NCBI GenBank assembly: GCA_017461605.1
Contig: JAFTXN010000010.1
Span: 1 to 64,000, forward strand
Length of the DNA: 64,000 nucleotides
Direction of reading: 5' to 3'
Source of the DNA: Bacteroidaceae bacterium
GTDB taxonomy: Bacteria > Bacteroidota > Bacteroidia > Bacteroidales > Bacteroidaceae
Every line of letters starts with the position of its first letter. Within the stretch, counting starts at the first letter, position 1. Below, one piece after another: positions 1,930 through 61,861 of this stretch. The notes under the pieces were generated by a model. That model saw only the letters and a list, made by a program, of their open reading frames with translations, did not search any database and had not been told where the DNA came from. A program made the translations under genes and the position numbers.

Positions 1930-2125
1930 ACTCGCCTTGCATACTTTCGCTAACGCGCAAGGGAGGCTGCGGCTCGGGAATAAAAGAAAAACCTGCGGTC
2001 TTTCTTTGTATTCCACTCGCCTTGCACACTTTCGCTGAAGCGCAAGGGAGGCCGCGGCTCGGGAATACAAAGAAAAACCTGCGGTCTTTCTTTGTATTCC
2101 ACTCGCCTTGCACTACCTTTGCCAC
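1930..2125 (+). promoter_or_regulatory. Tandem palindromic promoter module before the DUF3467 gene
   Basis: Two 85-86-nt near-identical units (1930-2014 and 2015-2100) are followed by the start of a third, which carries the functional-looking -7 box TACCTTTG (2112-2119). Each unit reads ACTCGCCTTGCA, then CTTTCGC..GCGCAAGGGAGG, a GCGGCTCGG box, and a hairpin. In unit 2 the hairpin is a perfect 14-bp stem, 2062-2075 with 2087-2100. The -33 TTTG (2089-2092) lies in the right arm, 19 nt from the -7 TA. The first two units have CTTTCGC in place of CCTTTGCC and so look decayed as promoters. The same architecture occurs at 50171-50321 and 61790-61861. From 1738 to 1929 I see nothing else. Confidence 0.75.
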
Positions 2126-2157
2126 GCAATAATAATTATAAAGAAAACAAGAACATT

Positions 2158-2496
2158 ATGAGTAATCAAAACAATGCAAACAAAGAAGGGCAGTTGCAGA
2201 TTGAATTGTCGCCCGAAGTTGCTGAAGGTATCTACACAAACTTGGCCATCATCACTCACTCAAGCGCAGAAGTGGTACTCGACTTCATCCGTGTGCTTCC
2301 CGGTGTGCCCAAAGCCAACGTGAAGAGCCGTATCGTACTCGCCCCCGAACATGCCAAACGTCTGCTCTTTGCTTTGCAAGACAACATCATGAAATACGAA
2401 AGCGCATTCGGCCCCATCAACCTGCCCGGCGCAGAGCCTCAGCAGGGCGGTGGTCGCACTGCCACTCCTTTTGGAATTCCCGAAGGAAAGGCCTAA
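2158..2496 (+). CDS. DUF3467 domain protein
   Basis: A 112-aa cytoplasmic protein of the DUF3467 family, whose function is unknown. The diagnostic core is visible as NLAIITHSSAEVVLDF and PKANVKSRIVLAPEHAKRL, followed by a Gly/Pro-rich tail. The start is the ATG at 2158; an upstream in-frame ATG at 2092 would begin upstream of the -7 box and is excluded. From memory of Bacteroides genomes the homologue lies directly after rpoC. Here it is about 9 kb from rpoC and on the opposite strand, with the M60 operon between, which suggests a rearrangement. Transcription is expected from the tandem promoter module at 1930-2125, leaving a leader of about 30 nt. Confidence 0.9.
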   Translation: MSNQNNANKEGQLQIELSPEVAEGIYTNLAIITHSSAEVVLDFIRVLPGVPKANVKSRIVLAPEHAKRLLFALQDNIMKYESAFGPINLPGAEPQQGGGRTATPFGIPEGKA

Positions 2497-2518
2497 GGAA
2501 TTTACATCCCAAGTTATC

Positions 2519-2560
2519 AAGCGAGGCGGTTCTTCACAGGAATCGCCTCGCTTGTTTTCG
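2519..2560 (+). terminator. Terminator of the DUF3467 gene
   Basis: A 10-bp stem, AAGCGAGGCG with CGCCTCGCTT, encloses a 13-nt loop and is followed by GTTTTCG. It lies about 22 nt after the stop. Confidence 0.85.
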
Positions 2561-2599
2561 TCCGTTAGATAGGATGACCAATATCTGCAAATAACAGAA

Positions 2600-2634
2600 G
2601 CGGAGCTGCCCATTCGGGTTGCTCCGCTTCACAT
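2600..2634 (-). terminator. Probable terminator of the M60 operon
   Basis: A 9-bp stem, AAGCGGAGC with GCTCCGCTT, is followed on the minus strand by CTGTTATTTG. It lies just past the stop of the 59-aa gene in a convergent gap. The T-run is weak. Confidence 0.55.
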
Positions 2635-2658
2635 TTAACAATCTAAGACCTCAAAGGC

Positions 2659-2838
2659 TTATTTCACATCTTTCCAAATACCATTGTCTCCGGTATTTAC
2701 TTCGCGTTTGCGACTGAGTTCGTTAAAGCTATCGTCAGCTTTGTCATTTCCACCGCTGACATCACTTCCCCCCATTATCACTGAGGGCTGCAAGCCGATG
2801 GTCAAGGTCTGCGGCTGTACATATATCTTCTTTTCCAT
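2659..2838 (-). CDS. 59-aa small protein downstream of the M60 peptidase
   Basis: A short gene encoding 59 residues that begins MEKKIYVQPQTLTIGLQPSV, continues IMGGSDVSGGNDKADD and ends in NTGDNGIWKDVK. It starts 26 nt after the stop of the M60 gene on the same strand, so the two are probably co-transcribed. There is no signal peptide or membrane segment. The layout is a basic start with a (V/I)xPQ-type segment, a central MGGS and an acidic/Gly-rich tail. It resembles small Bacteroidales proteins of unknown function that often carry an M(A/G)GS motif; that resemblance is from memory. AAAAAAG precedes the ATG. No function can be assigned. Confidence 0.7.
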   Translation of the reverse strand: MEKKIYVQPQTLTIGLQPSVIMGGSDVSGGNDKADDSFNELSRKREVNTGDNGIWKDVK

Positions 2839-2864
2839 AATTCTTTTTTCTTAATTGAATAATA

Positions 2865-5800
2865 TTACTTGATTTGAGATGCACGCACATACTGTTTTCT
2901 TCCATTCACGATATAGATACCGGAAGTTGTGATGCGTTCAATGCGGCGACCACTAAGGTCATAGATTGCCGCATGCTCCAGGTCTGTCTCAACACCGTCA
3001 ATATCCGTAACGGTATCACCGAAACCGAACATGGTCACTGCACCGCTGATGCTATAATCGTAAGGCAGATACACCTTGTTGGCTCCTACGCGGAAGTGAG
3101 TACCATTGTCCGTGTCATTCAGGCTTTCACCTTCCACTGCATTACCATTTTCATCGTAAACGGTCTGCGTACCATCTTCATTGTATTCCAAATAAGCCAT
3201 GTAGAAACCTACAAGGTTATTCTTCACACCGAACAGATAGTAGCTATAACCCGCAGCTCCGGGCAGATAAGTAGTGTAAGCACTACCGGACAAGAGGTTA
3301 TCGGTAATCTCTGCTGCCGGAGTGGTGTCATAATAGAAGGTGTAAGTACCCTGACTTCCCTCTACAATCACACCGGTGCAAGCCGGAAGTTCGTCTTCCA
3401 CCTGAGCAAACATAACCTTTCCGCCCTCGGCCTTGGTCACCTCAATATCGTTAGGATATTTCACCACAACACCATCAGGAATGGTTACCGGATAGTTGAG
3501 GTACATACCGGCGTGTTCGTATTGACCAATGGTGAGCTCGAACTTAACGGCCGACATATCGGAGATTTCTTTGAGAGTCCAAGCAGAATTTGAATCAGCA
3601 CCATAAGCACCCCAGCCCATAACAACGCCACCACTGGCATGCATCGGTTGTCCACCGGCAGGAACAAGAAGCACAATACCATTATTTGCATCTGCAGACT
3701 GCATCTCAACATTCTTTGCTTCGGAGCCTAATTGGTATTCACCTCCCCAAGTAAGAGCATTACTCAGCGTACAACCTGTTTGGAGGTTAGCTAAATGGAA
3801 TGTATTGTTCTCTTCATTAACATCTGTCACATACCATATAGTCTCAGCCTTGTCGGTTCTTCCTCCACCATACGAAACCTTATTCTCTCCGGTGGCATAC
3901 ATCACCTGACCTTCATGCAATACAGACTCAATCACATAGTGCTTACCCTCTTCCGGCAAAATCAAATCAAGCGCCTCGTTGGCTGCTTTCAGCGCATTGT
4001 ATGCCGCAGTGTAATCAGCATCTTCAATCGAAGTCTCGGCATAATAGCACACTTCATAGACGTTATAAACCGTCCAAACTCCGGTGCTGCCATTATACGC
4101 TGTAAATCCGGGATTCAGATAGGTTGTACCATCTTCACTACCGAGGACAAAACGCACGAGGTTTTCCAGATCGGAAGCGCCACTCAAGTCAGCGTTGCTT
4201 CCGGCGAATGCCGTATTTCCACTACCGCCCTGATATATAGCTTCTACAGGGACAAATGCTTGTGCACTTTCTTTTGCACCAAGAGCATAACCACTCTGCT
4301 GGAAGTAACCGTCATCACCTTCACTCATAGCTTTCAGATAATAACTGCCACTCTGTCCATCTGTGGTTGGTTCAAGACTGAAGATGGTATTAGCGGCCAA
4401 TGTTTCACTTAATCCATCGGCTTCACTCACCCATTTTTCAAAAGATCCTTCCTGCACACACTTGATACCAATGGTACGTTTAGCAACTCCGGCTCTCAAC
4501 TCATCTGCAGTGAGGATGCGTTTGGTCTCCACAATCGTACCGGGATTCAGCAAAGCTGTTGCTACTGCATAAGCCGAATTGTAAGTAGTTGCCTGCGCTT
4601 CGGGATAGAAACCAACGGCAGTACCACCCGTGATATTGCTTAACGTCAAACCATCGTAATACGTTTTAAGGCTGTTGTATGCAGCACTACCTTCAACCGT
4701 GGTGGAAACAAATTGGAGGTACGAGCCATCATCAGCGGCAGAATAGAAGCCCATCTTATTGTTGCCTCCACCATAGTGGCTGAAGTAAGTGCTTGTACCT
4801 ACGGGTTGCAAGCTGTACCAAGTAGCTTCTTCGACGGTTGCCTCTACAAACTTCCACTGCTCGTATGTGGCACCGCCCATTTTGGCAGCAAATGCCTTGT
4901 CTGCACCATCGCCAGTATTGTTGGCTGCAAGCACCATACCACCGGCTGCATAGGGATGAACGTACACCTGTCCGCGCTCTGTGCCTTCCATGAAGTAGAA
5001 AGCTTGAACAGCAGAACCGTCGTTCGTGTCAGAGATGTTGAATTTGTGTCCCTCGAACGGCAGATATTGCACCACCTTGGCATCACCACGACGACTCTTC
5101 ATGATATAGAGTACGGGATTTGCTGCATCCGTTGTCAAGGTTACAGGATAAAGCTTCGTATTGTACGCAGCGAGAAGAGCATCGTAGTATGCTTGGAGCT
5201 CAGCTGTTTTTGCTGTAACCTCCTCCTGAGTGCAATCGGAATTTGTAAGAGCTACAGCCTCTTCCTTAGAATTGTATGCATCCAGTATTTGTTCTTTTGT
5301 AACACTGCCTGCATTGGGATCAACGCTTGCAACGTTTTCCGAATTATAAGATGTTATGGGATACAAGTCAAATTCACGCATACCGAAGAAATACTGTCCG
5401 CCATATTCTGCGTTTCCTGGTCCGACAGATGCAGTAACCACAAAGCGCAAGTAACGATACTTCGTAGCAGAAGTTATTACATCAGAGGTGTAGGTGCTTC
5501 CTGAATTGTGTGCAGGGAGGCCGGAGGTTATGGTTGCAAGGACATCGGTGAATGAATTTGCATCGTTACTACCATACACTGTCATAGCTGTGGGTGCGGG
5601 AGAACCATTTCTTGGAGTATAACTGAACTTGAAATCAGAAAGAAGGTTTGCATCACCAAGGTCTATCTGGACATGGTGCGCCTCATCAACTACTGTACCG
5701 CTCCAACGTGTATGGAAATAAGTTTCCTCACTATTATCCACAAGAGCAGCAATACCACCTCCATCGTTATTGCCTCCGCCGGTGTTTTGATCGGCATTGG

Positions 5801-8800
5801 TTGAAACGTAGAAGTCGGAGTTTTCGGTAGTTGTCAAAGCTGAGGCTTCACCCACAACAGGAGTTTGAACAATGTCAATATCTCCACAGCGATCAAGCAA
5901 CTCGTTGGTTTGCGCAATCAGAGCCTCCAACGCGCTCTTATCCACTGCAACAGAAGCATTCTTCTTTTCATATAGTTCATCGTATTCAGCCTGCAAAGCT
6001 GCAATAGCCTGAATGAGTTGCATTTCTGTTGTCGCATTATCCAAGGTTGCTGTGGCAGAAGCTGTTTCGCGATAAGCCGAAATCATCAATTCCTCGGTTA
6101 CTTCTCCAGCGTTTGCGCCTAATTCTACTGCATAGTTGTCGGATGTACCATTAATGGTCAATCCGAATTCTGCCATGTGGAATATGGGGTGACCGCCTTG
6201 TTCCTTGTTATTGTTGGTAGCTGTCACCATGAAGCGGAGGTACTTGAGCTTCGCGTCTGATGTTATAACTGTAGATGTATAACTTTGAGTGTTACCGGTT
6301 GGCAAACCGGTAAATGTAGCCAAGGGGTCACCGTAGTTCGTTCCATCTACACTTCCGTACACTTCAATCGTCTCTGGATAATTGGCATCTGCATTATGAC
6401 GCGTAACATAATTAAATGTAAACGAAGAAGCGGTGGCTACTCCCAAATTCACTGTAATATGGTGGTCAAGACCATCGTTTGAATCATTGCCACTATAATC
6501 CGAATGGAAGAAAGTGCTGTTATCACCATCAACCAAATCCTTAATGGGACCTTCAACAGCGGACTGCGCGTTTGTCCAAATATAGAAGTTTTCACTGTTG
6601 TCAGTTGATTGCAACTTGGGAGTACCATCATAAGTACCGGGGGTATAATTCACCGTGCCACATTCAGTCATCAACGTGTTGGTGTTGGTGATGAGTGTCT
6701 GAAGTTCCTGCTTCTTCGCTGCAAGGCTTGCACTATTTGCATTGGTATATGCATCAAGCAACTTTTCGTATTCAGCGTATAAATCGTTGTAAGCCGTTTG
6801 ATATGTTTCGGCTGTAGCCTCCGTATTATCATAAACCGATACAGCATCTACTATTTCATCGCAGGCTGTGGTCAAAACGGAAGTTTCCAAATAAGAAGTA
6901 TACTTCGTCTGAATCTTATGGACCTGCGTCTCCGGAATATTTAATTTCACTTCAGCTAAGCCAAAGTATTTGTAGCCATTGAATGAGCCTCCGGAAGAAG
7001 TGCCTGTTACAGTGAAACGCCAATAGCGGTACGAAGTTGAACCATCTCCCAAAACAGCACTCGTATAGTCTGTCCCTTGTGTTGTAGGCAAGTTGGTCAG
7101 AGTTGTAATGTCATTCCACAACTCACCGTCTGTGCTTGCGGTAACCACAATGGTTGTAGGCAGGTCGGCTGTCCACCCTGTGGTATATGTAGTGTATTTC
7201 AGTACAAATTCCGACAGACTTTCTCCGTCTCCCAAATCAATTTGGAAATAATGGTTTTCTGCCACTTCAGAATCTCTCCAAACCGTATGGAAATAAGTAT
7301 CGTTGTTGTTGTCTACCAAGTAATTGGTTTCGTGGCCGGATTCTGTCGCATTGGAAGAAATTCTATATTGACTCATATCCAAATCGCCCCGATAAGTAAC
7401 GACACTCATTTCGTCTACCAAATCTTTGGTCTTCGCGATCAGCTCTTCCAACTGAGCGCGATTGTTGGCAACTTCGTTTTCTTCAACAGCTGTGATGTAC
7501 CAATGCGAAGCAGGAGTATCAGAACCCCATCCCCAACCTACAATGTTGTAGCTTTGACTCGAAGCGCAGTGAAGACCTGTATTCCCGGAGAATGCCCATG
7601 TACCATCGCCAAGGTCGTGGAATGTATAGGCGTAAGCTGCATCATTGCCAGAAGTTGCGGTCTTGTCGGCACTGAGCACACTACCAGAATAAACATTACC
7701 CGGATATTTTGACGTGGACTTGTTCTTCAAATAGTAGGTGCCACTTGTACTTCCAGCTTCGAAATACCAAAGTTGTGCATCACTGCTTTCTGTTGTGAGA
7801 CCGAACATTTCATCCACAGAAGTATCCGTATCGACATCTTTAACGTCAACGGCCATACTGCGATCAGGATATGCCTTATTCACTAAACGATAGGCCGTGC
7901 CTTCAACGATGCCTATCTTCGCATATTCATCACCTTGAACATCAATATATGCTTGGAGAAGGTTGTTGTAAACAGCTTTGTAAGATCCAACAGTCTTGTT
8001 ATCATAGGCCGTCTTAGCTGCAGTATAGGCTGTGTTCAGGGGTGCAATGCTTTCTTTGCGATACCATCCCACTTTCGTTCCTGTGTCGTCACTCAAATCG
8101 ACGATAACTTTTGCCGATTCCAACAATTCGCCCAACACCTCATACTGTTCATCGTTGCTACCGGAATTCATGATGTCTGTCGCTACGACAGGTTCGGAGT
8201 TATCATAATTGGTCACAACCACCTTTGCTTCGCCTGAAACAATAAGAGCAGCACATTCATTGGAGATTTCAAAGGTTGTTTTGTCTGAGAAACCGATGAT
8301 TTCACCATCTGCATTCAGAATGGCGAAACCTACACCGCCTGTTCCCTCCATGGTAATGGTGTTACCTGACACGGTGTAAGTGTACTCCGAAGCTACATTG
8401 GCACTGGTATATGAAGCATAACTACCCACTTCTGCACAAATGGTTGTTTCGCCATAGAGATCGAGGTTGTCGCCCTTGTAGCTCTGTATGGTTTCACCCG
8501 TAGCATCATTAACGAAAAGCACAGCGAGGTTTTCGGGATAACCCCAACTCTTCACATCCTCAATGGCAGCATCAATCTGATCCTGCGTCAAGTTATACAC
8601 AGCATTGTTGTAGTCACCGACAAGGCGATTTTCCATCACTTCGAAGAATCCGTGTGCACGGAAGAATTCGGTGAGGTCATCGCCGGATGCCAGACAACAC
8701 TTCTTGTAGAAGTGCATCAAGCACTTGCTACCATCCTGCTCGTACGCAATATTCATCGGGTCCTGACGGAGCATTTCAAAGAGACGGGGGTAGAACTTGG

Positions 8801-10754
8801 GATTGTTACCCAATACATGGTAGTACAAGAAGAGCTTGTAATACATGATGGTCTGTGCCCAGATGTTGTTGCTGAAGAAGTCGGTTCCCTCAGCATTGTA
8901 TTGTTTGAGCACATTGGTCAATGAACCATTATCACCATTGTAACGCGAGGTGGTTTCACCAAAATACCACAGCACAACATTGGCAAACAAGTTGTTGGTC
9001 ACCTCGGTCAGACCGCGCATATTGAGTAATTCCTGATGTTGGTGGCCGATTTCGTGACCGGGTCCCCAGTGGCTACCAGCATCGGTCGGCAAATTCTGAA
9101 TGACACCACCCATCGTATTATAGTGGTATCCGCAGTGATCCCAGCCACCATACATGTAAGAACTACCTCCAACACCGAAAGCCAAACCATGCACATTGTA
9201 ATAATCACCATAATCTGTGCCAAACCCATCGGTATCGTCTCCTGTATAAGCAAACACATGATCTTTGTCGGAATAGGGTGACTTCTGTGCATTGCCCTCA
9301 ATCGTTTCCTTATCGAGTACACCCAACACGAGGCGTTCCCACAGCATCACTTTATCCCATTCATCAATCACCGGTTCGATGTTCACCAACTCATTGAAGT
9401 AAGAACCAAGGCCCTTATTACCTTCGGTGTCGGCATCATTGAGCGGGAACTGCAGGGTTATATACTTACCCAATACCGTTACATCGGTCTGGGTGGCGCG
9501 AGCCTCGATGTAATCCCAATCGGCATTCTTATCACCTGAGCCATAAAGTTCATCACCCATCTTGTTGTAGTAACCATTGATGTAGCCACCCTCGATGTGT
9601 ATCTTCAGGTCAGCATAATCGGAGAGTTTACGAACCTTTGCATTATTACCCTTCTTGCCACCACTCGTATCGAATGTATGTACCACATAATTGACGCAGA
9701 GGTTGCAGTTATCTGCATAATAGGGAATAATGTTTAGTCCTTCGTGCAGCTCCACACCGTCACTGTAGCTATTGCCCAACTTGCCATGACCGGTGTAATA
9801 AGTCAAGTACAATGACGCACCATCCTTGATTGTGCCTTCCACCATCACGTAAACAATTCCGCGGTTGTTTACAAAGATACCCGTCGGGTTGTTGATATTG
9901 GTATGCGCATTGAGGCCCAAAGCTGATGAAGCCGCCCCAACCTCATTGTAAGGTTCATAGAGCTGCACACGATATTTCTTGGCATAATCAGAACCCCAAG
10001 CAGACTTGCCTGTATCATAGTTGGGTTCTTCCCAAGTGCCGTCTGTAGTCATCTTAAGCACCATCGCTTGAAGGGCAGCCGGCAAGGCTTTATAGTTATT
10101 ATCCGCCTGCATCTGTGCTGTGGTGTATGCAGCATAGGTAGCATTCAGCGCAGAACATGATTGATCCGTGAAAAGAGCATTGAGAGCCGTTTGGTAATTG
10201 CCTACATTGGCTGAAGTATTAGCCAACGCATCCAATTCCGCCCAGTTGGCCGCCAAATCTGAGGCACTCACACTCACCTCACTGACAGTCCACTGTGTAG
10301 CCTCAGCTCCCAACTCCCAACAAACAACGCTACCCTGGTTGGCACCATAGTGCATATAGCCGTAGCTATTGTTATCATTGGTGGCCCGGAGAGTGTAACC
10401 TGAACCTGCCGCCGAACAAGCAAACTTACAGTTGTCGTCAATGGACACAACCATTGACCACAGCTCGGAAGTAGCATTCGAACTGCGCAGATACTTTCCA
10501 TTACCCAAGTTTCTGAGGGTGTAAACACCTGAGGATACTTCCTCAACATACCACAATTGCTTGTAGTCGCTTGTCAAAGTAGCCGCAATCGAAACATTAG
10601 TTCCGGCGGTGGACGTCATCGAAGACCCACTGTTGGCTACATTCACAAAGTTGTAGACTTTTCCATTCGAAAGTTGTGCCCAAGTCAGGCCACCCACGAA
10701 CGGAGAAAGCAACAACAGAGAGATAATCAATCTCCACACTTTTGTGTTTCTCAT
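2865..10754 (-). CDS. Secreted M60-family (mucinase-like) metallopeptidase, 2629 aa
   Basis: A very large secreted gluzincin. A signal peptide (about 1-26) precedes a beta-trefoil-like domain (about 30-160) and a helical linker. The M60 catalytic region (about 230-720) has zinc motif H567-E568-I-G-H571 and a probable third ligand E584 in GLTEVTNNLF. M60/M60-like enzymes act on mucin-type glycoproteins; the substrate here is inferred. Then come FIVAR-like helical segments alternating with three discoidin (F5/8 type C) domains at about 1125-1285, 1378-1541 and 1634-1801, each with a DNNNDTYFHT- or DGDNSTFFHS-like motif. Further trefoil-like domains occupy about 1850-2400. The last 45 residues (IYDLSGRRI..GIYIVNGRK) form a type-A sorting-like tail. 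It is the first gene of a two-gene operon with the 59-aa gene. Confidence 0.9.
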   Translation of the reverse strand: MRNTKVWRLIISLLLLSPFVGGLTWAQLSNGKVYNFVNVANSGSSMTSTAGTNVSIAATLTSDYKQLWYVEEVSSGVYTLRNLGNGKYLRSSNATSELWSMVVSIDDNCKFACSAAGSGYTLRATNDNNSYGYMHYGANQGSVVCWELGAEATQWTVSEVSVSASDLAANWAELDALANTSANVGNYQTALNALFTDQSCSALNATYAAYTTAQMQADNNYKALPAALQAMVLKMTTDGTWEEPNYDTGKSAWGSDYAKKYRVQLYEPYNEVGAASSALGLNAHTNINNPTGIFVNNRGIVYVMVEGTIKDGASLYLTYYTGHGKLGNSYSDGVELHEGLNIIPYYADNCNLCVNYVVHTFDTSGGKKGNNAKVRKLSDYADLKIHIEGGYINGYYNKMGDELYGSGDKNADWDYIEARATQTDVTVLGKYITLQFPLNDADTEGNKGLGSYFNELVNIEPVIDEWDKVMLWERLVLGVLDKETIEGNAQKSPYSDKDHVFAYTGDDTDGFGTDYGDYYNVHGLAFGVGGSSYMYGGWDHCGYHYNTMGGVIQNLPTDAGSHWGPGHEIGHQHQELLNMRGLTEVTNNLFANVVLWYFGETTSRYNGDNGSLTNVLKQYNAEGTDFFSNNIWAQTIMYYKLFLYYHVLGNNPKFYPRLFEMLRQDPMNIAYEQDGSKCLMHFYKKCCLASGDDLTEFFRAHGFFEVMENRLVGDYNNAVYNLTQDQIDAAIEDVKSWGYPENLAVLFVNDATGETIQSYKGDNLDLYGETTICAEVGSYASYTSANVASEYTYTVSGNTITMEGTGGVGFAILNADGEIIGFSDKTTFEISNECAALIVSGEAKVVVTNYDNSEPVVATDIMNSGSNDEQYEVLGELLESAKVIVDLSDDTGTKVGWYRKESIAPLNTAYTAAKTAYDNKTVGSYKAVYNNLLQAYIDVQGDEYAKIGIVEGTAYRLVNKAYPDRSMAVDVKDVDTDTSVDEMFGLTTESSDAQLWYFEAGSTSGTYYLKNKSTSKYPGNVYSGSVLSADKTATSGNDAAYAYTFHDLGDGTWAFSGNTGLHCASSQSYNIVGWGWGSDTPASHWYITAVEENEVANNRAQLEELIAKTKDLVDEMSVVTYRGDLDMSQYRISSNATESGHETNYLVDNNNDTYFHTVWRDSEVAENHYFQIDLGDGESLSEFVLKYTTYTTGWTADLPTTIVVTASTDGELWNDITTLTNLPTTQGTDYTSAVLGDGSTSYRYWRFTVTGTSSGGSFNGYKYFGLAEVKLNIPETQVHKIQTKYTSYLETSVLTTACDEIVDAVSVYDNTEATAETYQTAYNDLYAEYEKLLDAYTNANSASLAAKKQELQTLITNTNTLMTECGTVNYTPGTYDGTPKLQSTDNSENFYIWTNAQSAVEGPIKDLVDGDNSTFFHSDYSGNDSNDGLDHHITVNLGVATASSFTFNYVTRHNADANYPETIEVYGSVDGTNYGDPLATFTGLPTGNTQSYTSTVITSDAKLKYLRFMVTATNNNKEQGGHPIFHMAEFGLTINGTSDNYAVELGANAGEVTEELMISAYRETASATATLDNATTEMQLIQAIAALQAEYDELYEKKNASVAVDKSALEALIAQTNELLDRCGDIDIVQTPVVGEASALTTTENSDFYVSTNADQNTGGGNNDGGGIAALVDNSEETYFHTRWSGTVVDEAHHVQIDLGDANLLSDFKFSYTPRNGSPAPTAMTVYGSNDANSFTDVLATITSGLPAHNSGSTYTSDVITSATKYRYLRFVVTASVGPGNAEYGGQYFFGMREFDLYPITSYNSENVASVDPNAGSVTKEQILDAYNSKEEAVALTNSDCTQEEVTAKTAELQAYYDALLAAYNTKLYPVTLTTDAANPVLYIMKSRRGDAKVVQYLPFEGHKFNISDTNDGSAVQAFYFMEGTERGQVYVHPYAAGGMVLAANNTGDGADKAFAAKMGGATYEQWKFVEATVEEATWYSLQPVGTSTYFSHYGGGNNKMGFYSAADDGSYLQFVSTTVEGSAAYNSLKTYYDGLTLSNITGGTAVGFYPEAQATTYNSAYAVATALLNPGTIVETKRILTADELRAGVAKRTIGIKCVQEGSFEKWVSEADGLSETLAANTIFSLEPTTDGQSGSYYLKAMSEGDDGYFQQSGYALGAKESAQAFVPVEAIYQGGSGNTAFAGSNADLSGASDLENLVRFVLGSEDGTTYLNPGFTAYNGSTGVWTVYNVYEVCYYAETSIEDADYTAAYNALKAANEALDLILPEEGKHYVIESVLHEGQVMYATGENKVSYGGGRTDKAETIWYVTDVNEENNTFHLANLQTGCTLSNALTWGGEYQLGSEAKNVEMQSADANNGIVLLVPAGGQPMHASGGVVMGWGAYGADSNSAWTLKEISDMSAVKFELTIGQYEHAGMYLNYPVTIPDGVVVKYPNDIEVTKAEGGKVMFAQVEDELPACTGVIVEGSQGTYTFYYDTTPAAEITDNLLSGSAYTTYLPGAAGYSYYLFGVKNNLVGFYMAYLEYNEDGTQTVYDENGNAVEGESLNDTDNGTHFRVGANKVYLPYDYSISGAVTMFGFGDTVTDIDGVETDLEHAAIYDLSGRRIERITTSGIYIVNGRKQYVRASQIK

Positions 10755-10880: not shown

Positions 10881-11087
10881 TACTGACCAAGAAAATATAC
10901 CAATACACGGATTTTATGTATAGAATTGGCAACTATCATATTATAAATTGGGCAAAAATGTGTAAAATGCGACGAAAAGACGCTGCACGAGACGCGTCAT
11001 GAGCTATGAGGAATTTACCTCCTTGCTCTGTGTGAGCAAATTATCCCGTATGCCTCGCAGCACAATCTGCAAGCACTGCAGAAAAAA

Positions 11088-11123
11088 CGGGAAGCACTGC
11101 AGAAAATTCTGCAGTGCTTCCCG
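11088..11123. repeat. Perfect 17-bp inverted repeat, GCACTGCAG family
   Basis: The two arms (11088-11104 and 11107-11123, CGGGAAGCACTGCAGAA and its complement) are separated by only AA. A further copy of GCAAGCACTGCAGAA lies just upstream at about 11069. It lies in the gap between the divergent M60 promoter and the rpoC terminator. Confidence 0.8.
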
Positions 11124-23740: not shown

Positions 23741-23812
<72 letters not shown>

Positions 23813-46500: not shown

Positions 46501-47427
46501 CAAAGAGTTTTCCATCTCTAACAGGGCAGGCAGATAAACATTGCTGTTAGTGATGGACTGTGTTAGGTATGTTTGAAACTTTCCAATATTATCATCGGTC
46601 GTTAGCTTCAAAAACCTTTCCTCTTTTGCATTTTGACCATTTATCTGGAATGTTTCGGTGGCAGTTTTTCTGTATTGACCATTATGATAATAGAAATACT
46701 CTAAAAATTCCAATCTATATTTAAGGTCAGAAGCTAACAGAGGCAAACCGGAGATGGTATACTCCACATTGTTGTTGTTGCGTGAATAAGTCCCCTCTTT
46801 GAAATAGTCCCATGAAACGGGGGACGTTGTGAGTGTGAGGGACGTACTTTCCCATGTGTCATTGTCTGCACACCATTGCCCCTGAAATTTAATTTCAAAA
46901 ACGTCACCGGGAGAGAATTTCACCGCCGGCAGAATTTCCACATATACATAATATGTATTATCGTCCCAACCACTACTTGTTCCATAAGGATTGTAGAACA
47001 TCACAGTGGCCTCCTCGCTATCATAAAGTTTCCATATTCCATCAATGGCACGATGCCCGTCGATATCTTTCTTCTGTGATACGATAAGTCCGTGCGGCTC
47101 ATTACATGTCAAAAAGCCTAAGTCGGAATAGGTCGACACTCCGGCTCCTGTTGTTCGGGTTATAGTGATGGACGGATTGTCAGTATCACCGTAATCCCAG
47201 TAGCTGGGTGCACCATTTGTGTCGCCATACATCAAGAGTGCTCTGACCGTGGGACTCTCCGGTGTCATGGTACTGTCTATCCATGTAAAAGTGGGCTCTG
47301 TACTCCAAACCGGCAAACTTCCCACCAACATCAACGCAACAAACCACAGCTGCCGCAGCTGGATATGCAACACGCGATCTGCCGAATGCCGCAACTTCAA
47401 AACGCTTTGTGTAAAAATGTCTTTCAT
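37561..47427 (-). CDS. Giant secreted LamG-domain protein, 3288 aa
   Basis: A 3288-aa exported protein, one of the largest in the window. An unusually long basic N-region precedes the signal hydrophobic core (about 24-43). Fibronectin-like stretches follow, then a LamG/concanavalin-like lectin domain (about 722-896, FSAEMWVSLDKN and FLDELRLWKRALNDEEI). A carboxypeptidase-regulatory-like domain lies at about 1004-1075. Two more LamG domains sit at about 2205-2390 and 2395-2593, both with (L/I)xYYPF or GYWKFDEG motifs. A tandem near 2730-3050 is followed by a module (about 3115-3230) that resembles the whole 219-aa protein encoded upstream. The tail (VKVYDAAGRHIHS..LPQGVYLVEATL) is the clearest type-A sorting signal in the window. 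No catalytic site is seen; adhesion or glycan binding is inferred. Confidence 0.85.
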   Translation of the reverse strand: MKDIFTQSVLKLRHSADRVLHIQLRQLWFVALMLVGSLPVWSTEPTFTWIDSTMTPESPTVRALLMYGDTNGAPSYWDYGDTDNPSITITRTTGAGVSTYSDLGFLTCNEPHGLIVSQKKDIDGHRAIDGIWKLYDSEEATVMFYNPYGTSSGWDDNTYYVYVEILPAVKFSPGDVFEIKFQGQWCADNDTWESTSLTLTTSPVSWDYFKEGTYSRNNNNVEYTISGLPLLASDLKYRLEFLEYFYYHNGQYRKTATETFQINGQNAKEERFLKLTTDDNIGKFQTYLTQSITNSNVYLPALLEMENSLKDNSDHKGEYDKIVEELNKEPTTIVFSNTADSKIFAGFTSTENLTATTNAWGKEVKLNWKNGTSYQPDENGKWYVFRYVTSEGVDTRTQLAALNVNEMSYTDKSLDYDKDYTYLVTFLPSHWNTNPVEIADDLKETVSAKLERTFYINLEATSLEGGVQLHWENPEFGDNGKYTFDILRSKNDTLTYNKLKEVQVTDRYQTDYYYDDIDMASACDVYYYKVAVTTMGVQHISNPASGSMLGTTKVTDFDASKGAYANLVKLWWSVDQYGSDDTQYILYRRLNGHKQDEWTKIYTVTGTDAQYSFEDVSVKPGLYYEYQLEVRVSCGGEFTSPTYFYQNGFGMATGVVSGRVTYGTGTAVENVRVIAVPASDPDHPVEQQMYALRGQGLKAGIVVPMDSVKMTNIFGGEKGFSAEMWVSLDKNIKNLKDESSYAEPMLLELSNAFAFYAKRQDNGKYKLVAKVPNESRTLQVHETSIELSTHEYHHLTFTYDAGNKEWRIVVAGDSVLQKAVVSQSALFAVKDIPQKKRALLFGINADTLAVHNFQGFLDELRLWKRALNDEEIVRNCGRLLDGQEEGLALYYPLDENIEGQRAAYDYSRTAGVTNNMHGLIGVGGVIHKHTPTQSQLSNYGLTDAGGNYILRSLSTGKDGITYNITPMLGVHEFSPVNTPRFISENSLVYSDVNFQDVSSFTVSGVIYYENTTYPVKGCQLLVDGEPCIYNNRIVETDDEGRFTISVPIGDHYITVVKEGHVFAHGGRYPADPDSIGTLYTFDRDISGLTFTDNTKVLVVGRVSGGKVQKELPIGFGESVANIGQAVIELNAGDRKMNVELKGEGVSSYYDNATGPLTYTNDVEKVNSTAVVGGGSETAVRTITITTDAETGEFAAWLPPVQYTVKSVSVKNPNVSFENLPMLDASEALNRHKSVLVETNEDGTEVRLDSLIYNTSLNLSYRSPSQLQLTDISDGNPGLGGIGEQFYYVNRSVEEDGKVVEKTDTIALYTVSKDPETQANVITYTQSYPCVITGNTYKYRITGFEVYENHDGTEVKTDKVFLKGAVLTIANEFAGDTPMSNDETAETTVGEPESHELILNEEGEVEYSFVGGLPNIQAPYTLGLSITYQYDGNFHSWNKNGEFYAIALGAIPTGTNFVTKGPEKILAVLRDPPGSNSSASWEEGTIIDTKTTNVGNFDANLAFKGTFKWGAARETATGAPGFYLLQDFDKLKDRTAGFDVHVQGKAGGVETFQSVAATTISTSASPEYVGANGDLFYGVSTNLTFGEAREVGFHEVEGGNIELGLKDIISVGEEYGTTFLYTQHYIESTLIPNLIDLRNGVLLPQGTVVQQSQEDTVYYVSNVPENHENYGTSNYDEVWGDSKLDPENLQIVNGVCVGPSYTIYFPTSFTSGEDKELSEALEVDSVYLFNEQVRKWQQELSNNEAVKVKAIESGENVDNVSFDAGTSYRNTVSKAEGDGLTWSAGFNIMILYEKVKGYEYKNKGFQINFHVHAKGDYTHSEDSVHTDKTTTIYTLAESGTRDALSVDVYSVKGEASPVFRTRGGQTSCPYEGEVKTKYYLDSSGLPYTISEATMQIEKPAILCAEPIKTGVPVGGKAYFTFELQNNSEVETDVWYSFGTVEASNKNGARVLINGTPGGKSLLIPAGQSVTQVVTIEQGDPSVLDYDSIQVFLASQCQGDPTSPNGAISVSVPISAHFVPACSEVRLQASESVINTVTGDVLELTIDGYDPNHRSLKSIQIQKKTAGSDWVTVMGYFVDKADSTSVVCEALGQDGSKTFKLSMADAITYPDQTYEFRAITVCDFGQGEVNNESPLLTIVKDMKQPALLALPSPADGVYNVGDEIALIFNEEIIGGSINADDNIVVTGLLNETQVDHSVAYHAEGGEPARTEALIDLAQRSFAVNLWMNYSKPGTVFSHGSSDKGLALVLQDDATVVMIDNNVVATGKAIPADTWTFVNASVSYDADEQQAYLSVHSAYNDAVDTLFSEVAIGNYAGRGPLSLGEGLIGSIHEVTLWNTSRSAVVAISEKNTTKAPYTPGLVGYWKFDEGHGNTATDVARNRHILLPNANAWQLSSVNKALHLGGDSYASIALGACPTVDTDDYMLEFWFKANVNQQTLPVTIFSAGDDMISLNVGNLKLDQSDVHVDKEVMYMVVKGRPYLVSANTFMDNAWHHVALNVLNRTKGVTTLYIDGVAQRQWDADVLPGLQAESLILGAHSAKDDANTYVYDRPMVGEFDEVRYWKGTLTASFIRENMFYRVPDGETSLLAYYPFERNTLDEGNQAVVVADLSDHSSLASPAARVITLTGSDVAEWVGQQAPPLKAAPVLQNVPFRFVASDRMLRIEPEIAPERIEETTLHFTVKGIRDVNGNYSGEYKWTALVKQNPLNWEESEVNITKQSEETAQFVARIVNTGHTTEVWSVSGLPEWLEVNKAAGSLQPLSSAELTFTISKAATVGRYETTVYLVGNNGIASPLEVHLKSQGQEPDWRVNPADYSTSMNIIGRLRIDGEVSENPDNMLAAFIGNTCVGVAYPQYMKRYDTYYVVMTVYGNDEHHNQEIQFRVYDAETGIVHPRVKTLNVVTFMSEHLMGTYGDPVLFFTSDEIEQEVHVDKGWQWRSLYVAPTDAALASLLAPVQGNVTYIKVRDGFAAYNETTGKWSGGFFNTMEPGGMYKMHAAQTATFPVVGLGVDLSQHEIPIMKGWNWIGFSSPVGMTVADAFAPFGPEDGDVVKSQYDFAVYSDYAWEGTLDALLPGQGYIYCSTHAGTKMLVYPTAASHQSKPTVKPTRTLHNADISEGSAYPGNMNVIAEVRQGDEIITDARVRVLCGEELRGASQSCRADKLHFITIQGEGSGAMLRVVVEHDGTTIEAAEPLFFNEDTLLGSLQRPYVIQLDPSASVTGITLIKNQGSITLQSAVSMRDVKVYDAAGRHIHSAGGNVNEVRIAMENLPQGVYLVEATLSNGQHRTFRVLW

Positions 47428-50170: not shown

Positions 50171-50321
50171 ACTTTGGCAAAGTCCAAGTTAGGCGGCTCG
50201 GAAAAATTCAAACAAGTTTGGCTTTTCGCTCGCCTTGCACACTTTGGCAAAGCCCAAGTTAGGCGGCGGCTCGGAAAAGCTCAAACAAGTTTGGCTTTTC
50301 GCTCGCCTTGCACTAACTTTG
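50171..50321 (+). promoter_or_regulatory. Tandem palindromic promoter module of the thi operon
   Basis: Two units with a period of about 70-73 nt, starting ACTTTGGCAAAG at 50171 and 50241. Each has an AGGCGG(CGG)CTCGG box, a hairpin, then GCTCGCCTTGCAC. In the second unit the hairpin is GAAAAGC-t-CAAAC with GTTTG-GCTTTTC (50274-50286 and 50289-50300). The -33 TTTG (50290-50293) sits in the right arm, 20 nt from -7 TAACTTTG (50314-50321). The first unit has CACACTTTGG at the -7 place and looks inactive. The stem sequence is unrelated to the modules at 1930 and 61790, but the layout is the same. Confidence 0.78.
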
Positions 50322-50335
50322 CCCACGCAAGCAAA

Positions 50336-50411
50336 GACAAAGGGGTGCCCGATGCGGGGCTGAGAACATACCCTCCGACCTGATGCAGACAATGCTGCCG
50401 TAGGAATTGTG
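50336..50411 (+). ncRNA. TPP (THI-box) riboswitch
   Basis: All conserved THI-box pieces are present in order: AGGGGTGCCC, GGGGCTGAGA, ACATACCCT, GACCTGATGCAG, and TGCTGCCGTAGGAA. P1 is closed by ACAA (50337-50340) with TTGT (50406-50409). It senses thiamine pyrophosphate. A small hairpin AAGCC-acc-GGCTT (50435-50447) plus a seven-T run (50454-50460) lies between it and thiS and may be the expression platform. Confidence 0.97.
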
Positions 50412-50492
50412 CTTTTATCGCTTTTCTTATCCCCAAGCCACCGGCTTCCCGTGTTTTTTTGCTTTCATGCCAACCTCTCTAAAATTTATGGA

Positions 50493-55712: not shown

Positions 55713-55719
55713 CACACAT

Positions 55720-57104: not shown

Positions 57105-57181
57105 AAAAGGAACTCAAGTGGAACAATCATTCAAAAGTGATGTTCGATCATGCACTGATACCGCAGGAGCAAATCCGATAG
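56978..57181 (+). pseudogene. 3' remnant of an unrecognised gene
   Basis: In a different frame from the upstream gene, 56978-57181 encodes EFPYAYRIVEEGHHFHKEEN then GEYYRISKIYRECILKATGE and ends in QEQIR. Its composition is protein-like, but there is no start or plausible 5' half. It seems to be the tail of a gene whose front was lost at the junction near 56975. Confidence 0.5.
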
Positions 57182-57263
57182 CGACACAAAGGTGCTATCT
57201 GCCATTATGAAATGCACAAAAGCCCAATAGAATCCTCTATATTAAAAGGTAGATGCTATAAAT

Positions 57264-57464
57264 TCACTCGAAACGATCATAGTGCTGAGCTTTGGCATAG
57301 CCTTGCACCGCAGCCTTACGCCACCTTTTCGCAGCTTCAGTGTAGCGACCTTGTTGGTCGAAGTCAAGGCCTTTCTTGTACCAATCCTCAACATCGGCTT
57401 GAGTTTGCGCCACGACGGGGAGCAGAGCGATCATTGCGATGAAAAGTGATAGAATGCGTTTCAT
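57264..57464 (-). CDS. Very short exported Sel1-like repeat protein, probably truncated
   Basis: A 66-aa product with a signal peptide (MKRILSLFIAMIALLPVVAQ) and one TPR/Sel1-like repeat (DWYKKGLDFDQQGRYTEAAK then RWRKAAVQGYAKAQ). Family members usually carry several repeats, so this copy has probably lost its 3' part. It lies beside other gene remnants. No promoter or terminator is clear, and 57182-57263 is featureless. Confidence 0.6.
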   Translation of the reverse strand: MKRILSLFIAMIALLPVVAQTQADVEDWYKKGLDFDQQGRYTEAAKRWRKAAVQGYAKAQHYDRFE

Positions 57465-57659
57465 AAATCTGTAGGGTTAGAGAAGTTTGAGAAATCATGC
57501 GGAGTGCTCCATCGTTCAAGCTCTTATAGAACTTCAGCACCAATATGGGGTTATCGAGAACTGTCTCCGGAATTATTCGCGCGTATGTATCTGTTCGGTG
57601 GAATGACTTATGTGCAAGTGTTCCTACGAACTGGTCTGCGCACCATACTCTTCAGAATA
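57465..57659. other. Gene-free interval
   Basis: I see no gene, promoter or repeat here. With the remnants on its left it may be decayed coding sequence, but no reading frame shows similarity that I recognise. Confidence 0.4.
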
Positions 57660-57690
57660 ACACCGCCCCATCGCTGACGATGGGGCGGCA
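57660..57690 (-). terminator. Terminator of the C1 peptidase gene
   Basis: An 11-bp perfect stem, CCGCCCCATCG with CGATGGGGCGG, encloses a 4-nt loop and is followed on the minus strand by TGTTATT. It lies about 120 nt past the stop. Confidence 0.75.
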
Positions 57691-57807
57691 AATATCTGAG
57701 ATTCTAAAGTAGAGCACCATGCTTTTGTCGCCATCGGAAGACGACCAAAGTGGAGTGCATTCCCTTAATGTGTGCTATGCAAATGTTCTTAGTTCGGCTT
57801 CCTAAAA

Positions 57808-58998: not shown

Positions 58999-59058
58999 TG
59001 ATTTGATTTTTTATAAAATTGATATTGATCTTTCGTCATTGGTCTGCATCGTCCACGC

Positions 59059-60462: not shown

Positions 60463-60493
60463 AGTTAGGTTGCATTTCGATAAAGTAATAGGG

Positions 60494-60501
60494 CAAAAAT
60501 A
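60494..60501 (-). promoter_or_regulatory. -7 box of the aminopeptidase P gene
   Basis: The minus-strand TATTTTTG fits the -7 consensus and is about 32 nt before the start at 60462. A -33 box is not clear. It diverges from the patatin promoter at 60542-60573. Confidence 0.5.
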
Positions 60502-60541
60502 CACTTTTTATTTGGAAAACTCGTCTTTTTGTCGCCACAAG

Positions 60542-60573
60542 TTGGAATTGCATACGCACGAAGCGTATCTTTG
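60542..60573 (+). promoter_or_regulatory. Promoter of the patatin-like gene
   Basis: TTG (60542-60544) and TATCTTTG (60566-60573) are 21 nt apart, a good Bacteroidetes-type promoter about 58 nt before the start codon. Confidence 0.7.
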
Positions 60574-60631
60574 CCTTGCAAAAAGCGATTTGCATGGCAA
60601 ATTCGAACAATCACACAACGAATACTGAAAG

Positions 60632-61495
60632 ATGAAGACTAAACTTATCAACACGGCCCTCGTTCTGGAGGGAGGCGGGATGCGAGGGGTGTTCAACATC
60701 GGAGTGATGGACTACCTCATGGATGCCGGTATCAGTTTCCCACACTGCATCGCTGTATCGGCAGGTGCGTGCAACGGCCTGTCGTACATGAGTCGGCAGC
60801 GTGGACGCGCCAAGCTCTCGACCATCGACTACATGAAGAAATATCGCTACATCGGGATGAAACACCTCTGGTCGCAACACAGCATTTTCGACCAGCACAC
60901 CATGTACGACCGACTGCCCAACGAACTCCTGCCGTTCGACTATGCCACCTGCTTCGCCAACCCCATGCGCTTTGAGATGGTGGTAACAAACTGCCGAACC
61001 GGTCAGGCAGAATATCTCACCGAGACCCAAGACCCCGAACGCCTGTTGCTCATCACCAAAGCTTCGAGCAGCCTGCCCTACGTCTGCCCCATCGTCAATG
61101 TGGATGGTGAACCGATGCTCGATGGCGGCATTGCCGACTCCATCCCTGTGGAGCGTGCTTTGGCTCTCGGCTTCAAGAAGCCCGTGGTGGTGCTCACACG
61201 CAACCGAGGATACCGCGACACGGGACGCGACATCAAGCAGCCGAAATTCATCTACCGCAACTATCCGCGCCTACGCCTGCTGCTGAGCAAGCGGCACGAG
61301 CTATACAACCAGGAACTGGAACTCATCGAACGCATGGAGGATGCCGGCGAAATCATCGCCATCCGGCCGATACGCCCCATGGAGGTGGACAGACTGGAGC
61401 AGGATGAGGAAAAACTCAACGCGCTCTACGAAGAGGGTTACGAGTGCGCACGAATGGCCCTGCAACCGCTCATCGAGTCGAAAACAGAAGACTGA
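60632..61495 (+). CDS. Patatin-like phospholipase (YjjU-like)
   Basis: A 287-aa serine hydrolase of the patatin family, likely acting on phospholipid acyl chains. The oxyanion loop is LEGGGMRGVF (about 12-21). The nucleophile S43 lies in IAVSAGACNG, so the first Gly of the usual GxSxG is Ala. The catalytic aspartate is D164 in MLDGGIADSIPV. Layout and length fit the YjjU/RssA-like subgroup. No signal peptide is seen, so a cytoplasmic or inner-membrane-associated location is inferred. The gene stands alone behind its own promoter. Confidence 0.88.
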   Translation: MKTKLINTALVLEGGGMRGVFNIGVMDYLMDAGISFPHCIAVSAGACNGLSYMSRQRGRAKLSTIDYMKKYRYIGMKHLWSQHSIFDQHTMYDRLPNELLPFDYATCFANPMRFEMVVTNCRTGQAEYLTETQDPERLLLITKASSSLPYVCPIVNVDGEPMLDGGIADSIPVERALALGFKKPVVVLTRNRGYRDTGRDIKQPKFIYRNYPRLRLLLSKRHELYNQELELIERMEDAGEIIAIRPIRPMEVDRLEQDEEKLNALYEEGYECARMALQPLIESKTED

Positions 61496-61789
61496 CGAGC
61501 GCCAAAGGCAAGGGGCTAATTCTGCAAGGCGTTTAGAAATTTCTGCAGTGCTTGTAAAATTTTCTGCAAGCACTGCAGATTTTTCTTGCATGCGGACGCG
61601 CATTCAGCACCGGTCCTCGCACGCTTTCCCAAGCATCGTCAAGAGAGGGGAAAAGCCCTTTGCAGTTGTTTTAACAAGATTCGTTTTTCCCCATTTCATC
61701 AATAGATTTCCCCTGTCCGCATACTCACTTATTCCCAAGGAAGACTCTGATTTTTTCTCTGCTTGACGCTACCTCAAAATAAGGCAGGA
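61496..61789. other. Interval after the patatin gene
   Basis: No gene is supported. It contains the inverted repeat at 61543-61578 and, next to it, a GCGTTTAGAAATTTC half-arm shared with the 25936 and 52715 elements. The rest to the promoter module at 61790 is featureless. Confidence 0.5.
61543..61578. repeat. Perfect 12-bp inverted repeat, GCAAGCACTGCAG family
   Basis: Arms CTGCAGTGCTTG (61543-61554) and CAAGCACTGCAG (61567-61578) enclose TAAAATTTTCTG. Upstream lies AAGGCGTTTAGAAAT (from 61526), which elsewhere forms the outer arm but here has no partner. It looks like a rearranged relative of the 52715 element. Confidence 0.85.
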
Positions 61790-61861
61790 GGCGGCTCGGG
61801 AATGCAACTGAAAAATCGTGCCGCTTTTTCGTCGCATTCCTCTCGCCTTTCACTACCTTTG
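61790..61861 (+). promoter_or_regulatory. Palindromic promoter module of the spmAB-like gene
   Basis: A single unit: GGCGGCTCGGG, hairpin GGAATGC..GAAAAA with TTTTTC..GCATTCC (61799-61815 and 61825-61840, interior mismatches), then TCTCGCCTTTCAC and -7 TACCTTTG (61854-61861). The layout is the same as at 1930-2125 and 50171-50321 but the stem sequence is different. The -33 is weaker (TTTC, 23 nt away). Confidence 0.7.

What the first reader, a model, noticed from the sequence alone, without database searches (positions are those of the whole stretch)
1930..61861. Three-locus promoter module with conserved shell but sequence-swapped hairpin
At 1930-2125, 50171-50321 and 61790-61861 the same layout occurs: a GGCGGCTCGG(G) box, a hairpin, CTCGCCTT(G/T)CAC, then the -7 box TACCTTTG or TAACTTTG. 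The hairpin stems are unrelated in sequence (GGAATACAAAGAAA; GAAAAGC-CAAAC; GGAATGC-GAAAAA) yet each pairs with itself, so pairing rather than sequence is kept. At two loci the -33 TTTG sits in the right arm, 19-20 nt from -7. The genes driven are unrelated (DUF3467, thi operon, spmAB-like). A structural role is inferred: a hairpin or cruciform regulating -33 access, or a mobile repeat family captured as promoters.
Basis: partly seen in the sequence, partly recalled or inferred. Interest (0 to 1): 0.72.

Follow-up and report, generated by a model that had tools for sequence, protein, structure and literature searches.

The report
Hairpin promoter repeats in Bacteroidales
The three look-alike promoters belong to a large family of roughly 84-base hairpin-forming DNA repeats, found in scattered gut Bacteroidales genomes, in which the copy nearest a gene looks like its promoter while the hairpin part is exchanged between sites, as if promoters had become a self-spreading repeat.

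Summary
The window's genome (a draft of genus Alloprevotella) gave 147 covariance-model matches, a lower bound. Fetched stretches held 159 HMM hits in 76 head-to-tail arrays. Unit: left arm AAGNTAGG[C/A]..GCGGCTCGG, variable stem-loop, right arm CTCGCCTT[G/T]CAC, then the -7 box TANCTTTG.

Pairing rather than sequence is kept: 90.9% of paired cells against 39-49% when slid. Covariation reaches the -7 base, the G/T position and the shell. In stems, G.T and A.C mismatches are equally rare (128 and 120 of 3,144), pointing to DNA rather than sense RNA.

The gene-proximal unit keeps TAnnTTTG in 196 of 208 arrays; internal units in 35 of 182.

Between sister genomes array positions are mostly kept, but the stem differs in 23 of 35 and 6 of 11 orthologous last units. 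Near-identical stems recur at other sites.

Distribution is patchy: 28 of 58 genus genomes, 19 of 393 order genomes, only the own genome of 198 from the class.

Best reading: a REPIN/Correia-like palindromic repeat whose gene-proximal unit became the promoter. Regulation by the hairpin is untested.

The parts
1931..1949 (+). remnant of an older unit's right arm (CTCGCCTTGCATACTTTCG), left end of array 1
   Evidence: direct reading
1959..2034 (+). internal unit of array 1, -7 lost (CACACTTTCG)
   Evidence: CM hit 58.7 bits; DNA fold z -1.85
2044..2121 (+). gene-proximal unit of array 1 (hairpin plus promoter)
   Evidence: CM hit 80.2 bits; DNA fold z -4.65
2091..2094 (+). -33 TTTG in right arm, 19 nt before -7
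2114..2121 (+). -7 box TACCTTTG
   Evidence: fits TAnnTTTG as given in PMC7366714
2158..2496 (+). DUF3467 gene downstream
   Evidence: Pfam PF11950, E 5.4e-31
50186..50246 (+). internal unit of array 2, -7 lost (CACACTTTGG)
   Evidence: CM hit 41.5 bits; DNA fold z -0.96
50256..50321 (+). gene-proximal unit of array 2
   Evidence: CM hit 73.3 bits; DNA fold z -4.11
50290..50293 (+). -33 TTTG, 20 nt before -7
50314..50321 (+). -7 box TAACTTTG
50331..50423 (+). TPP riboswitch just downstream of array 2
   Evidence: RF00059, 61.9 bits
50493..50690 (+). thiS, first gene behind the riboswitch; start codon chosen by eye
   Evidence: Pfam PF02597, E 1.7e-6
61781..61861 (+). single unit, G/T position = T type
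   Evidence: CM hit 75.8 bits; DNA fold z -2.72
61854..61861 (+). -7 box TACCTTTG
61885..63117 (+). Gate (nucleoside recognition) protein gene downstream; start codon chosen by eye
   Evidence: Pfam PF07670, E 3.2e-25

Best explanation
It is a Bacteroidales family of palindromic DNA repeats (mostly 73-90 bp apart in arrays) that carry a housekeeping-type promoter in the right arm and have taken over many promoters. Shown by sequence: each unit is an imperfect hairpin with a conserved, itself covarying shell and a variable, self-paired stem; units form head-to-tail arrays; the unit next to the gene keeps the -7 box and internal units mostly lose it; array positions are mostly inherited while the stem (often the whole unit) is replaced by one like those found elsewhere in the genome. 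Inferred: stems move as cassettes between arrays by recombination or copying across the conserved inter-stem junction (about 45 nt in arrays); pairing is kept because the copying or retaining step acts on the extruded hairpin as DNA; only the gene-proximal unit is useful to the cell, so extra upstream -7 boxes decay. It therefore works like a REPIN or Correia-type repeat that supplies promoters. The factor that copies it is unknown.
For: Copy number and control: 131 vs 0, 147 CM matches. Covariation: 90.9% paired vs 39-49% slid, score 0.319 vs 0.097 shuffled (59 units); in other taxa the -7 base with its left partner is Watson-Crick in 85 of 87 and the G/T position in 85 of 87 units whose left arm fitted the pattern (133 had a left shell, of 170 cut); shell pair 14/73 G-C 389, C-G 21 and pair 15/72 C-G 381, T-A 31 of 440 units (11 of the 21 come from loci of genomes fetched mainly for CTCGGC, 10 do not). 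DNA level: G.T 128, A.C 120 of 3,144. Promoter: -7 intact in 196 of 208 gene-proximal vs 35 of 182 internal; ORF >=100 aa starting within 200 nt downstream in 185 of 196, median 28 nt from -7. Position: array at the matching place in 43 of 51; with stricter matching 39 of 40, 39 of 43, 13 of 13 and 14 of 14. Swapped stems: 23 of 35 (G000/G022) and 6 of 11 (G042/G055, downstream 86-97% identical). Sharing: 22 of 64 G000 arrays share a stem (<=1 difference) with another array; 0 of 20,370 pairs match between the two species pairs.
Against: No mobilising gene found. No clean, fully alignable empty site for a first insertion was found; sites without an array exist (8 of 51, three of them probably paralogous hits; 5), but the upstream DNA of the five aligned was too diverged. 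Positions are mostly fixed, which fits slow or past mobility. Near-identical stems are about as frequent between sister genomes (4.87 per 1,000 pairs, orthologous places included) as within one (6.40 in G000, 4.71 in G022), so exchange inside one genome is not separated cleanly from common descent. Promoter activity rests on motif and decay pattern, not on mapped 5' ends; G042 internal units keep -7 in 10 of 17. Some stem change may be unequal recombination inside mixed arrays (66 of 152 adjacent pairs differ in stem type). Genomes are drafts; arrays of identical units can be mis-assembled.
Confidence: 0.6

Rival explanations
1. Host regulatory module: the palindrome extrudes as a cruciform (or binds a structure-reading protein) and controls access of RNA polymerase to the -33/-7 elements; copies spread because they regulate.
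For: Promoter boxes sit inside or at the end of the hairpin; gene-proximal units have somewhat better hairpins than internal ones (z<-2 in 93% of 195 vs 77% of 154; in the window the two internal units fold weakly); single stem differences appear first and compensated doubles accumulate with distance, as under selection on pairing.
Against: No 20-mer match in 30 of 58 genomes of the same genus (drafts); internal units without -7 mostly keep hairpin and CTCGCCTT core; no -33 in about a third of gene-proximal units; the three window genes are unrelated.
Confidence: 0.22
2. Ordinary tandem-duplicated promoters homogenised by recombination; the palindrome is a by-product with no role.
For: Tandem arrays with same-type neighbours (86 of 152); position stability.
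Against: Covariation at the -7 base, the G/T position, two shell pairs and the stem, and in the small hairpin between units at its outer two pairs (0.91 vs 0.56 and 0.89 vs 0.80 re-dealt; third pair 0.92 vs 0.91, no excess), is not expected of a by-product.
Confidence: 0.08
3. RNA element: a 5'-UTR or antisense hairpin acting in transcripts started upstream.
For: A covariance model works and hairpins fold well; some palindromic Bacteroidetes candidates were listed as RNAs in PMC8040213 (passages).
Against: It lies upstream of the -7 box of the gene; internal -7 boxes are mostly dead; G.T is no commoner than A.C in stems and rarer over the nine outer pairs (147 vs 201, summed); no Rfam family reached its gathering score at the three window loci.
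Confidence: 0.06
4. A RAYT-mobilised REPIN family in the strict sense.
For: Inverted shell plus diverse spacer forming a hairpin, as REPINs are described (PMC8049555, passages).
Against: Y1_Tnp found in 16 of 28 genomes with and 12 of 30 without the repeat (tally); none of 30 fetched Y1 loci (of 42 matches) has a right arm within about 1.5 kb, and the one in G000 sits among different palindromes.
Confidence: 0.04

Closest known systems
REPINs / REP elements (RAYT-associated)
   Same: Hairpin-forming, inverted conserved ends around a diverse spacer, vertically kept population of copies in a genome (PMC8049555, passages).
   Different: Here units sit head-to-tail, end in a promoter box, and the variable part itself pairs; no RAYT link was found.
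Correia repeat enclosed elements (Neisseria)
   Same: Short palindromic repeats that can supply promoters to neighbouring genes (PMC2649163, passages).
   Different: CREE have inverted-repeat ends, often a TA target, and only a minority with recognised promoters; here 196 of 208 gene-proximal units carry -7, with tandem arrays and swapped stems.
BOX elements (Streptococcus pneumoniae)
   Same: Structured repeats with tandem modules in variable number (PMC3049150, passages).
   Different: boxA/boxB/boxC architecture, not seen here; no promoter box at a fixed end is described in the passages seen.
BrickBuilt (Porphyromonas gingivalis)
   Same: Bacteroidales intergenic element with tandem repeats and promoter activity (PMC4596501, passages).
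   Different: 23-nt bricks with leader and tail; the bricks are reported without matches outside P. gingivalis. Sequence likeness was not tested here.
Bacteroides sigma-AB promoter (TTTG at -33, TAnnTTTG at -7)
   Same: The right arm carries these motifs, often with 19-20 nt spacing (motif from PMC7366714, passages; spacing).
   Different: The palindromic shell is not part of that consensus.

Membership tests
REPIN/REP | high-copy intergenic hairpin repeat with inverted conserved ends | tested here: met
REPIN/REP | associated RAYT (Y1) transposase, normally flanked by its own repeats | tested here: not met
   16 of 28 vs 12 of 30 genomes with Y1_Tnp; right arm near 0 of 30 fetched Y1 loci
REPIN/REP | GTAG or CGTC tag not involved in pairing | tested here: not met
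   unit ends are AAGNTAGG and TANCTTTG, both inside the paired region; tags as described in PMC3733652 (passages)
MITE / Correia element | terminal inverted repeats with target-site duplication | tested here: inconclusive
   24 of 48 units judged first in array have a TAnnTTT box within 40 nt to the left (control 113 of 3,035); in 4 of 24 its first variable base differs from the unit's own -7 base
MITE / Correia element | related transposase or IS with the same ends | not tested
   only Y1_Tnp was searched
Sigma-AB promoter | TAnnTTTG at -7 | tested here: met
   196 of 208 gene-proximal units
Sigma-AB promoter | TTTG at about -33 | tested here: inconclusive
   TTTG at 19-20 nt in 106 of 196; no TTG at 15-24 nt in 63 of 196
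Sigma-AB promoter | transcription starts a few nt downstream | not testable with these tools
   no transcript data
Structured RNA | G-U tolerated over A-C on the sense strand | tested here: not met
   G.T 128, A.C 120 of 3,144 stem cells; 147 vs 201 over nine outer pairs

The most novel reading that the evidence does not exclude
A self-propagating promoter: a DNA hairpin element, read by its structure and copied by a machinery unlike RAYT, that has overwritten dozens of native promoters per genome in scattered Bacteroidales lineages and keeps exchanging hairpin cassettes between genes while leaving each gene's leader, and mostly its -7 box, in place.
Probability: 0.35. Interest if true: 0.86.

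Novelty: new variant of a known kind. Interest (0 to 1): 0.72.

Why it matters
If right, dozens of genes in common gut bacteria, among them the thiamin operon and probably tRNA genes, are transcribed from copies of one repeat that behaves like a mobile element. That would be promoter takeover on a genome scale, would explain fast promoter change between sister species, and offers a natural experiment with about a hundred variants per genome for asking whether DNA hairpins at promoters matter.

Tried and rejected
RAYT as mobiliser: rejected. Phage carriage: the only exact match in viral contigs lies in a stretch without the left shell and looks like chance. RNA structure: disfavoured on mismatch symmetry. 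Copying of one arm from the other by template switching: not favoured, since nearest-neighbour stems differing at 2 sites showed 0 compensated doubles in 62 comparisons; doubles appear from 3 differences on (4 in 37 comparisons) and grow with distance (reciprocal neighbours are counted twice). Simple target-site duplication: not proved. Alignments of 5 G000 arrays without a nearby array in the fetched G022 stretches did not resolve the upstream side. Integron attC likeness was considered from memory and dropped; it was not tested by a tool.

Papers: searches. In the rows listed (15 of 99, 15 of 46, 15 of 34, 15 of 133; the others in full) none describes this family. The library is open-licence PMC only. 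Supplementary tables of PMC8040213, whose Bacteroidetes palindromes HMP2_1065 and HMP2_1032 might overlap, could not be seen. Of the papers cited I saw passages only.
Full report
WHAT IS THERE. The three loci in the window share one unit. Searching the window's genome (G000, 2,062,558 bases, 10 contigs, 81% complete) for CTCGCCTTKCACTANCTTTG with up to 2 mismatches gave 131 places against 0 for the reversed pattern. A covariance model built from 59 units of the own genome and other taxa gave 147 matches in G000 and 135 in the related G022; only 150 of 1,503 and 150 of 1,930 first-look candidates were scored, so these are lower bounds, though a few matches may be the two strands of one palindrome. 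In the stretches I fetched, an HMM gave 159 hits in 76 arrays in G000 (22 single, 54 with 2-5 units) and 120 hits in 70 arrays in G022; 12 of the 159 cover less than 50 of 80 model positions and 2 neighbouring pairs overlap. Start-to-start spacings peak at 84-85 bp, with a smaller rise at 73.

ORGANISM. G042, placed by the tool in the same genus as the window, has a contig of 42,704 bases with a unit at 4657-4732, matching CALUNU010000017.1, titled uncultured Alloprevotella sp., in length and in the position given there (L059). G022 contigs of 174,151, 256,944 and 108,738 bases match in length JAFYPU records titled Bacteroidaceae bacterium RGIG7311, water buffalo cecum.

ANATOMY. Left arm AAGNTAGG[C/A][T/G]GCGGCTCGG, variable stem-loop, right arm CTCGCCTT[G/T]CAC then TANCTTTG. 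RNAalifold finds the outer helix, the GGC/GCC shell helix and the stem. With the structure named, 90.9% of 1,235 cells pair, against 39-49% when partners are slid by 1-3 columns; the covariation score is 0.319 against a shuffled mean of 0.097 (0 of 500 reach it). The number of pairs with changes on both sides (10 of 21) does not discriminate: shuffled mean 9.0, reached by 105 of 500. Rows of that alignment were 59 of 91 candidates, chosen to have a recognisable AAG..AGG left end, which fixes some columns.

COVARIATION WITHOUT A MODEL. In units cut by shell patterns only, from loci of other taxa (170 cut, 133 with a left shell), the variable -7 base and its left partner are Watson-Crick in 85 of 87 units and the G/T position in 85 of 87; 46 of the 133 did not fit the left pattern and were set aside. 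In the first 30 own-genome loci the figures are 20 and 23 of 24, with 8 of 32 set aside. Among 440 distinct units the shell pair 14/73 is G-C 389, C-G 21, G.G 5, C.C 8, others 17; pair 15/72 is C-G 381, T-A 31, C.A 17, T.G 7, others 4. Of the 21 C-G units, 11 come from the loci, most of which were fetched because their right arm reads CTCGGC; 10 come from G055, G042 and other taxa not picked for it; the T-A units are from G000, G022, G042 and G055. At the 13 loci of G262, G367 and G435 fetched for CTCGGC there are 16 such right arms: 11 have GCGCCTC in the 75 nt before, none has GCGGCTC, 5 have neither. The small hairpin between units covaries at its outer two pairs (0.91 vs 0.56 and 0.89 vs 0.80 re-dealt) but not at the third (0.92 vs 0.91), over 91 junctions.

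DNA OR RNA. In 393 distinct stems, 3,144 mirrored cells: Watson-Crick 74.3% (43.1% with arms re-dealt), G.T 128, A.C 120. Over nine pairs of the outer helix G.T sums to 147 and A.C to 201, 83 of these at pair 5/82. A sense-strand RNA helix would favour G.U over A.C. The unit also lies upstream of the -7 box.

PROMOTER. Gene-proximal units keep TAnnTTTG in 196 of 208 arrays (G000 73 of 76, G022 64 of 70, G042 26 of 29, G055 33 of 33); internal units in 35 of 182 (12 of 83, 6 of 50, 10 of 17, 7 of 32), so G042 is an exception among internal units. Internal lesions are of several kinds: TA lost, one base lost, TTTT, TTTC, CTCTG. Internal units keep the CTCGCCTT core (0.08 mismatches of 8 against 0.12 in gene-proximal units) and mostly the hairpin (z<-2 in 77% of 154 against 93% of 195; upstream control 20% of 203); left shells are worse in internal units (0.83 against 0.45 mismatches of 9). 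This used 349 of 390 units, those in which both shells could be cut within set mismatch limits, which favours intact units. Of 196 gene-proximal units with -7, 106 have TTTG at 19-20 nt and 63 have no TTG at 15-24 nt; 185 have an ORF of at least 100 aa (any frame, ATG/GTG/TTG) starting within 200 nt downstream, median 28 nt from the -7 end; the same test to the left on the other strand gives 94 of 190. Some leaders run straight into tRNA-like sequence (L026, L137; read by eye). In a relative whose DUF3467 gene lacks the repeat (G035), an ordinary TTTG-19 nt-TAAATTTG promoter can be read before the gene (read by eye). The motif itself is from PMC7366714 (passages).

POSITIONS MOSTLY STAY, STEMS CHANGE. 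Of 76 G000 arrays, 51 had a downstream match in the fetched G022 stretches; in 43 of these an array lies nearby in G022. The 8 without include 3 weak hits to one G022 place that are probably paralogous. Requiring the match to begin within 60 nt of the array, which drops 4 of the likely empty sites, gives 39 of 40, in the reverse direction 39 of 43, and 13 of 13 and 14 of 14 between G042 and G055. Comparing gene-proximal stems at orthologous places: G000/G022, 35 of 40 pairs could be cut; 12 have identity 0.84 or more and 23 below 0.75. G042/G055, 12 of 13 could be cut but one row is mis-cut and set aside; of the other 11, 5 are at 0.84 or more and 6 below 0.80, with downstream DNA 86-97% identical in those 6. 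In one G042/G055 pair both flanks and the left shell are alike while the whole stem differs; in another, G055 has one extra unit between a -7 box and the leader, and this unit carries the local CTCGGC variant with a matching GCGCC left arm.

WHERE STEMS COME FROM. Near-identical stems (<=1 difference) are shared between arrays in 22 of 64 G000 arrays with long stems, 13 of 62 in G022, 6 of 28 in G042 and 3 of 30 in G055. Pairs within 2 differences: 43 of 6,719 within G000, 20 of 4,242 within G022, 53 of 10,881 between G000 and G022 (orthologous places included), 0 of 20,370 between {G000,G022} and {G042,G055}. So the shell is shared across the order while stems are private to close relatives; exchange within one genome is suggested but not cleanly separated from sharing between sister species. 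Adjacent units are of the same stem type in 86 and different in 66 of 152 pairs, so recombination inside mixed arrays can also change the last stem.

LEFT EDGE. Of 48 units judged first in their array, 24 have a TAnnTTT box within 40 nt to the left, against 113 of 3,035 control windows. Some of these are eroded older units; two (L105, L223) follow a TTG or TTTG 20 nt before the box and look like native promoters (read by eye). This fits insertion just behind an existing -7 box but does not prove it.

DISTRIBUTION. With <=1 mismatch: 28 of 58 genus genomes, 1-106 places in those with a match; 19 of 393 order genomes including the own one, in 9 of 207 genera; 1 of 198 class genomes, the own one. 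Viral contigs: one exact match, without the left shell. Diverged forms would be missed by the pattern, and drafts are incomplete.

MOBILISER. Y1_Tnp is found in 28 of 58 genus genomes: 16 of the 28 with and 12 of the 30 without the repeat (my tally). In 30 fetched Y1 loci (of 42 matches) no right arm was found; two weak left-shell-like hits lie roughly 0.8 and 1.3 kb from the gene (L158, L169).

SELECTION ON PAIRING. Nearest-neighbour stems differing at 2 sites show no compensated doubles (0 in 62 comparisons); doubles appear from 3 differences on and grow with distance. So changes arise singly and are compensated or replaced later, as expected if pairing is selected, and not as expected if one arm is simply copied from the other.

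VERDICT. A real, large family of palindromic promoter repeats, not described in the papers listed by my searches. Family, DNA-level pairing and promoter placement are well supported; that stems spread by copying between sites is likely; that the hairpin is the handle for that copying is inference.

Noticed in passing
L161 1402-1866 (G000:C10): A RAYT-like Y1 transposase gene flanked on both sides by several copies of a different, GC-rich palindromic repeat (GCCCCGTTGGGGCGT..., CCCTGAAAGGGCAAAAGCA), a typical-looking REP/RAYT setting unrelated to the finding.
   Followed up: partly
window 11057-11113 and 61520-61570: A second intergenic repeat family (21-nt units like TCTGCAAGCACTGCAGAAAA), similar sequence of which also appears just upstream of several promoter arrays in G000 and G022.
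   Followed up: no
G262 and G367 loci L326-L337: Genomes whose sampled copies read CTCGGC in the right arm and, where a left shell is readable, GCGCC in the left arm: a shell variant changed on both sides.
   Followed up: partly
L248 (G000:C3:151000-156000) 2267-2597: Array of four units with alternating stem types A-B-A-B, suggesting duplication of a dimer.
   Followed up: no
window 2865-10754 and 37561-47427, minus strand: Two very long ORFs (2,629 and 3,288 aa), not examined.
   Followed up: no
L026 and L137: The promoter unit stands directly before tRNA-like sequence, so the repeat may drive tRNA genes too (read by eye).
   Followed up: no
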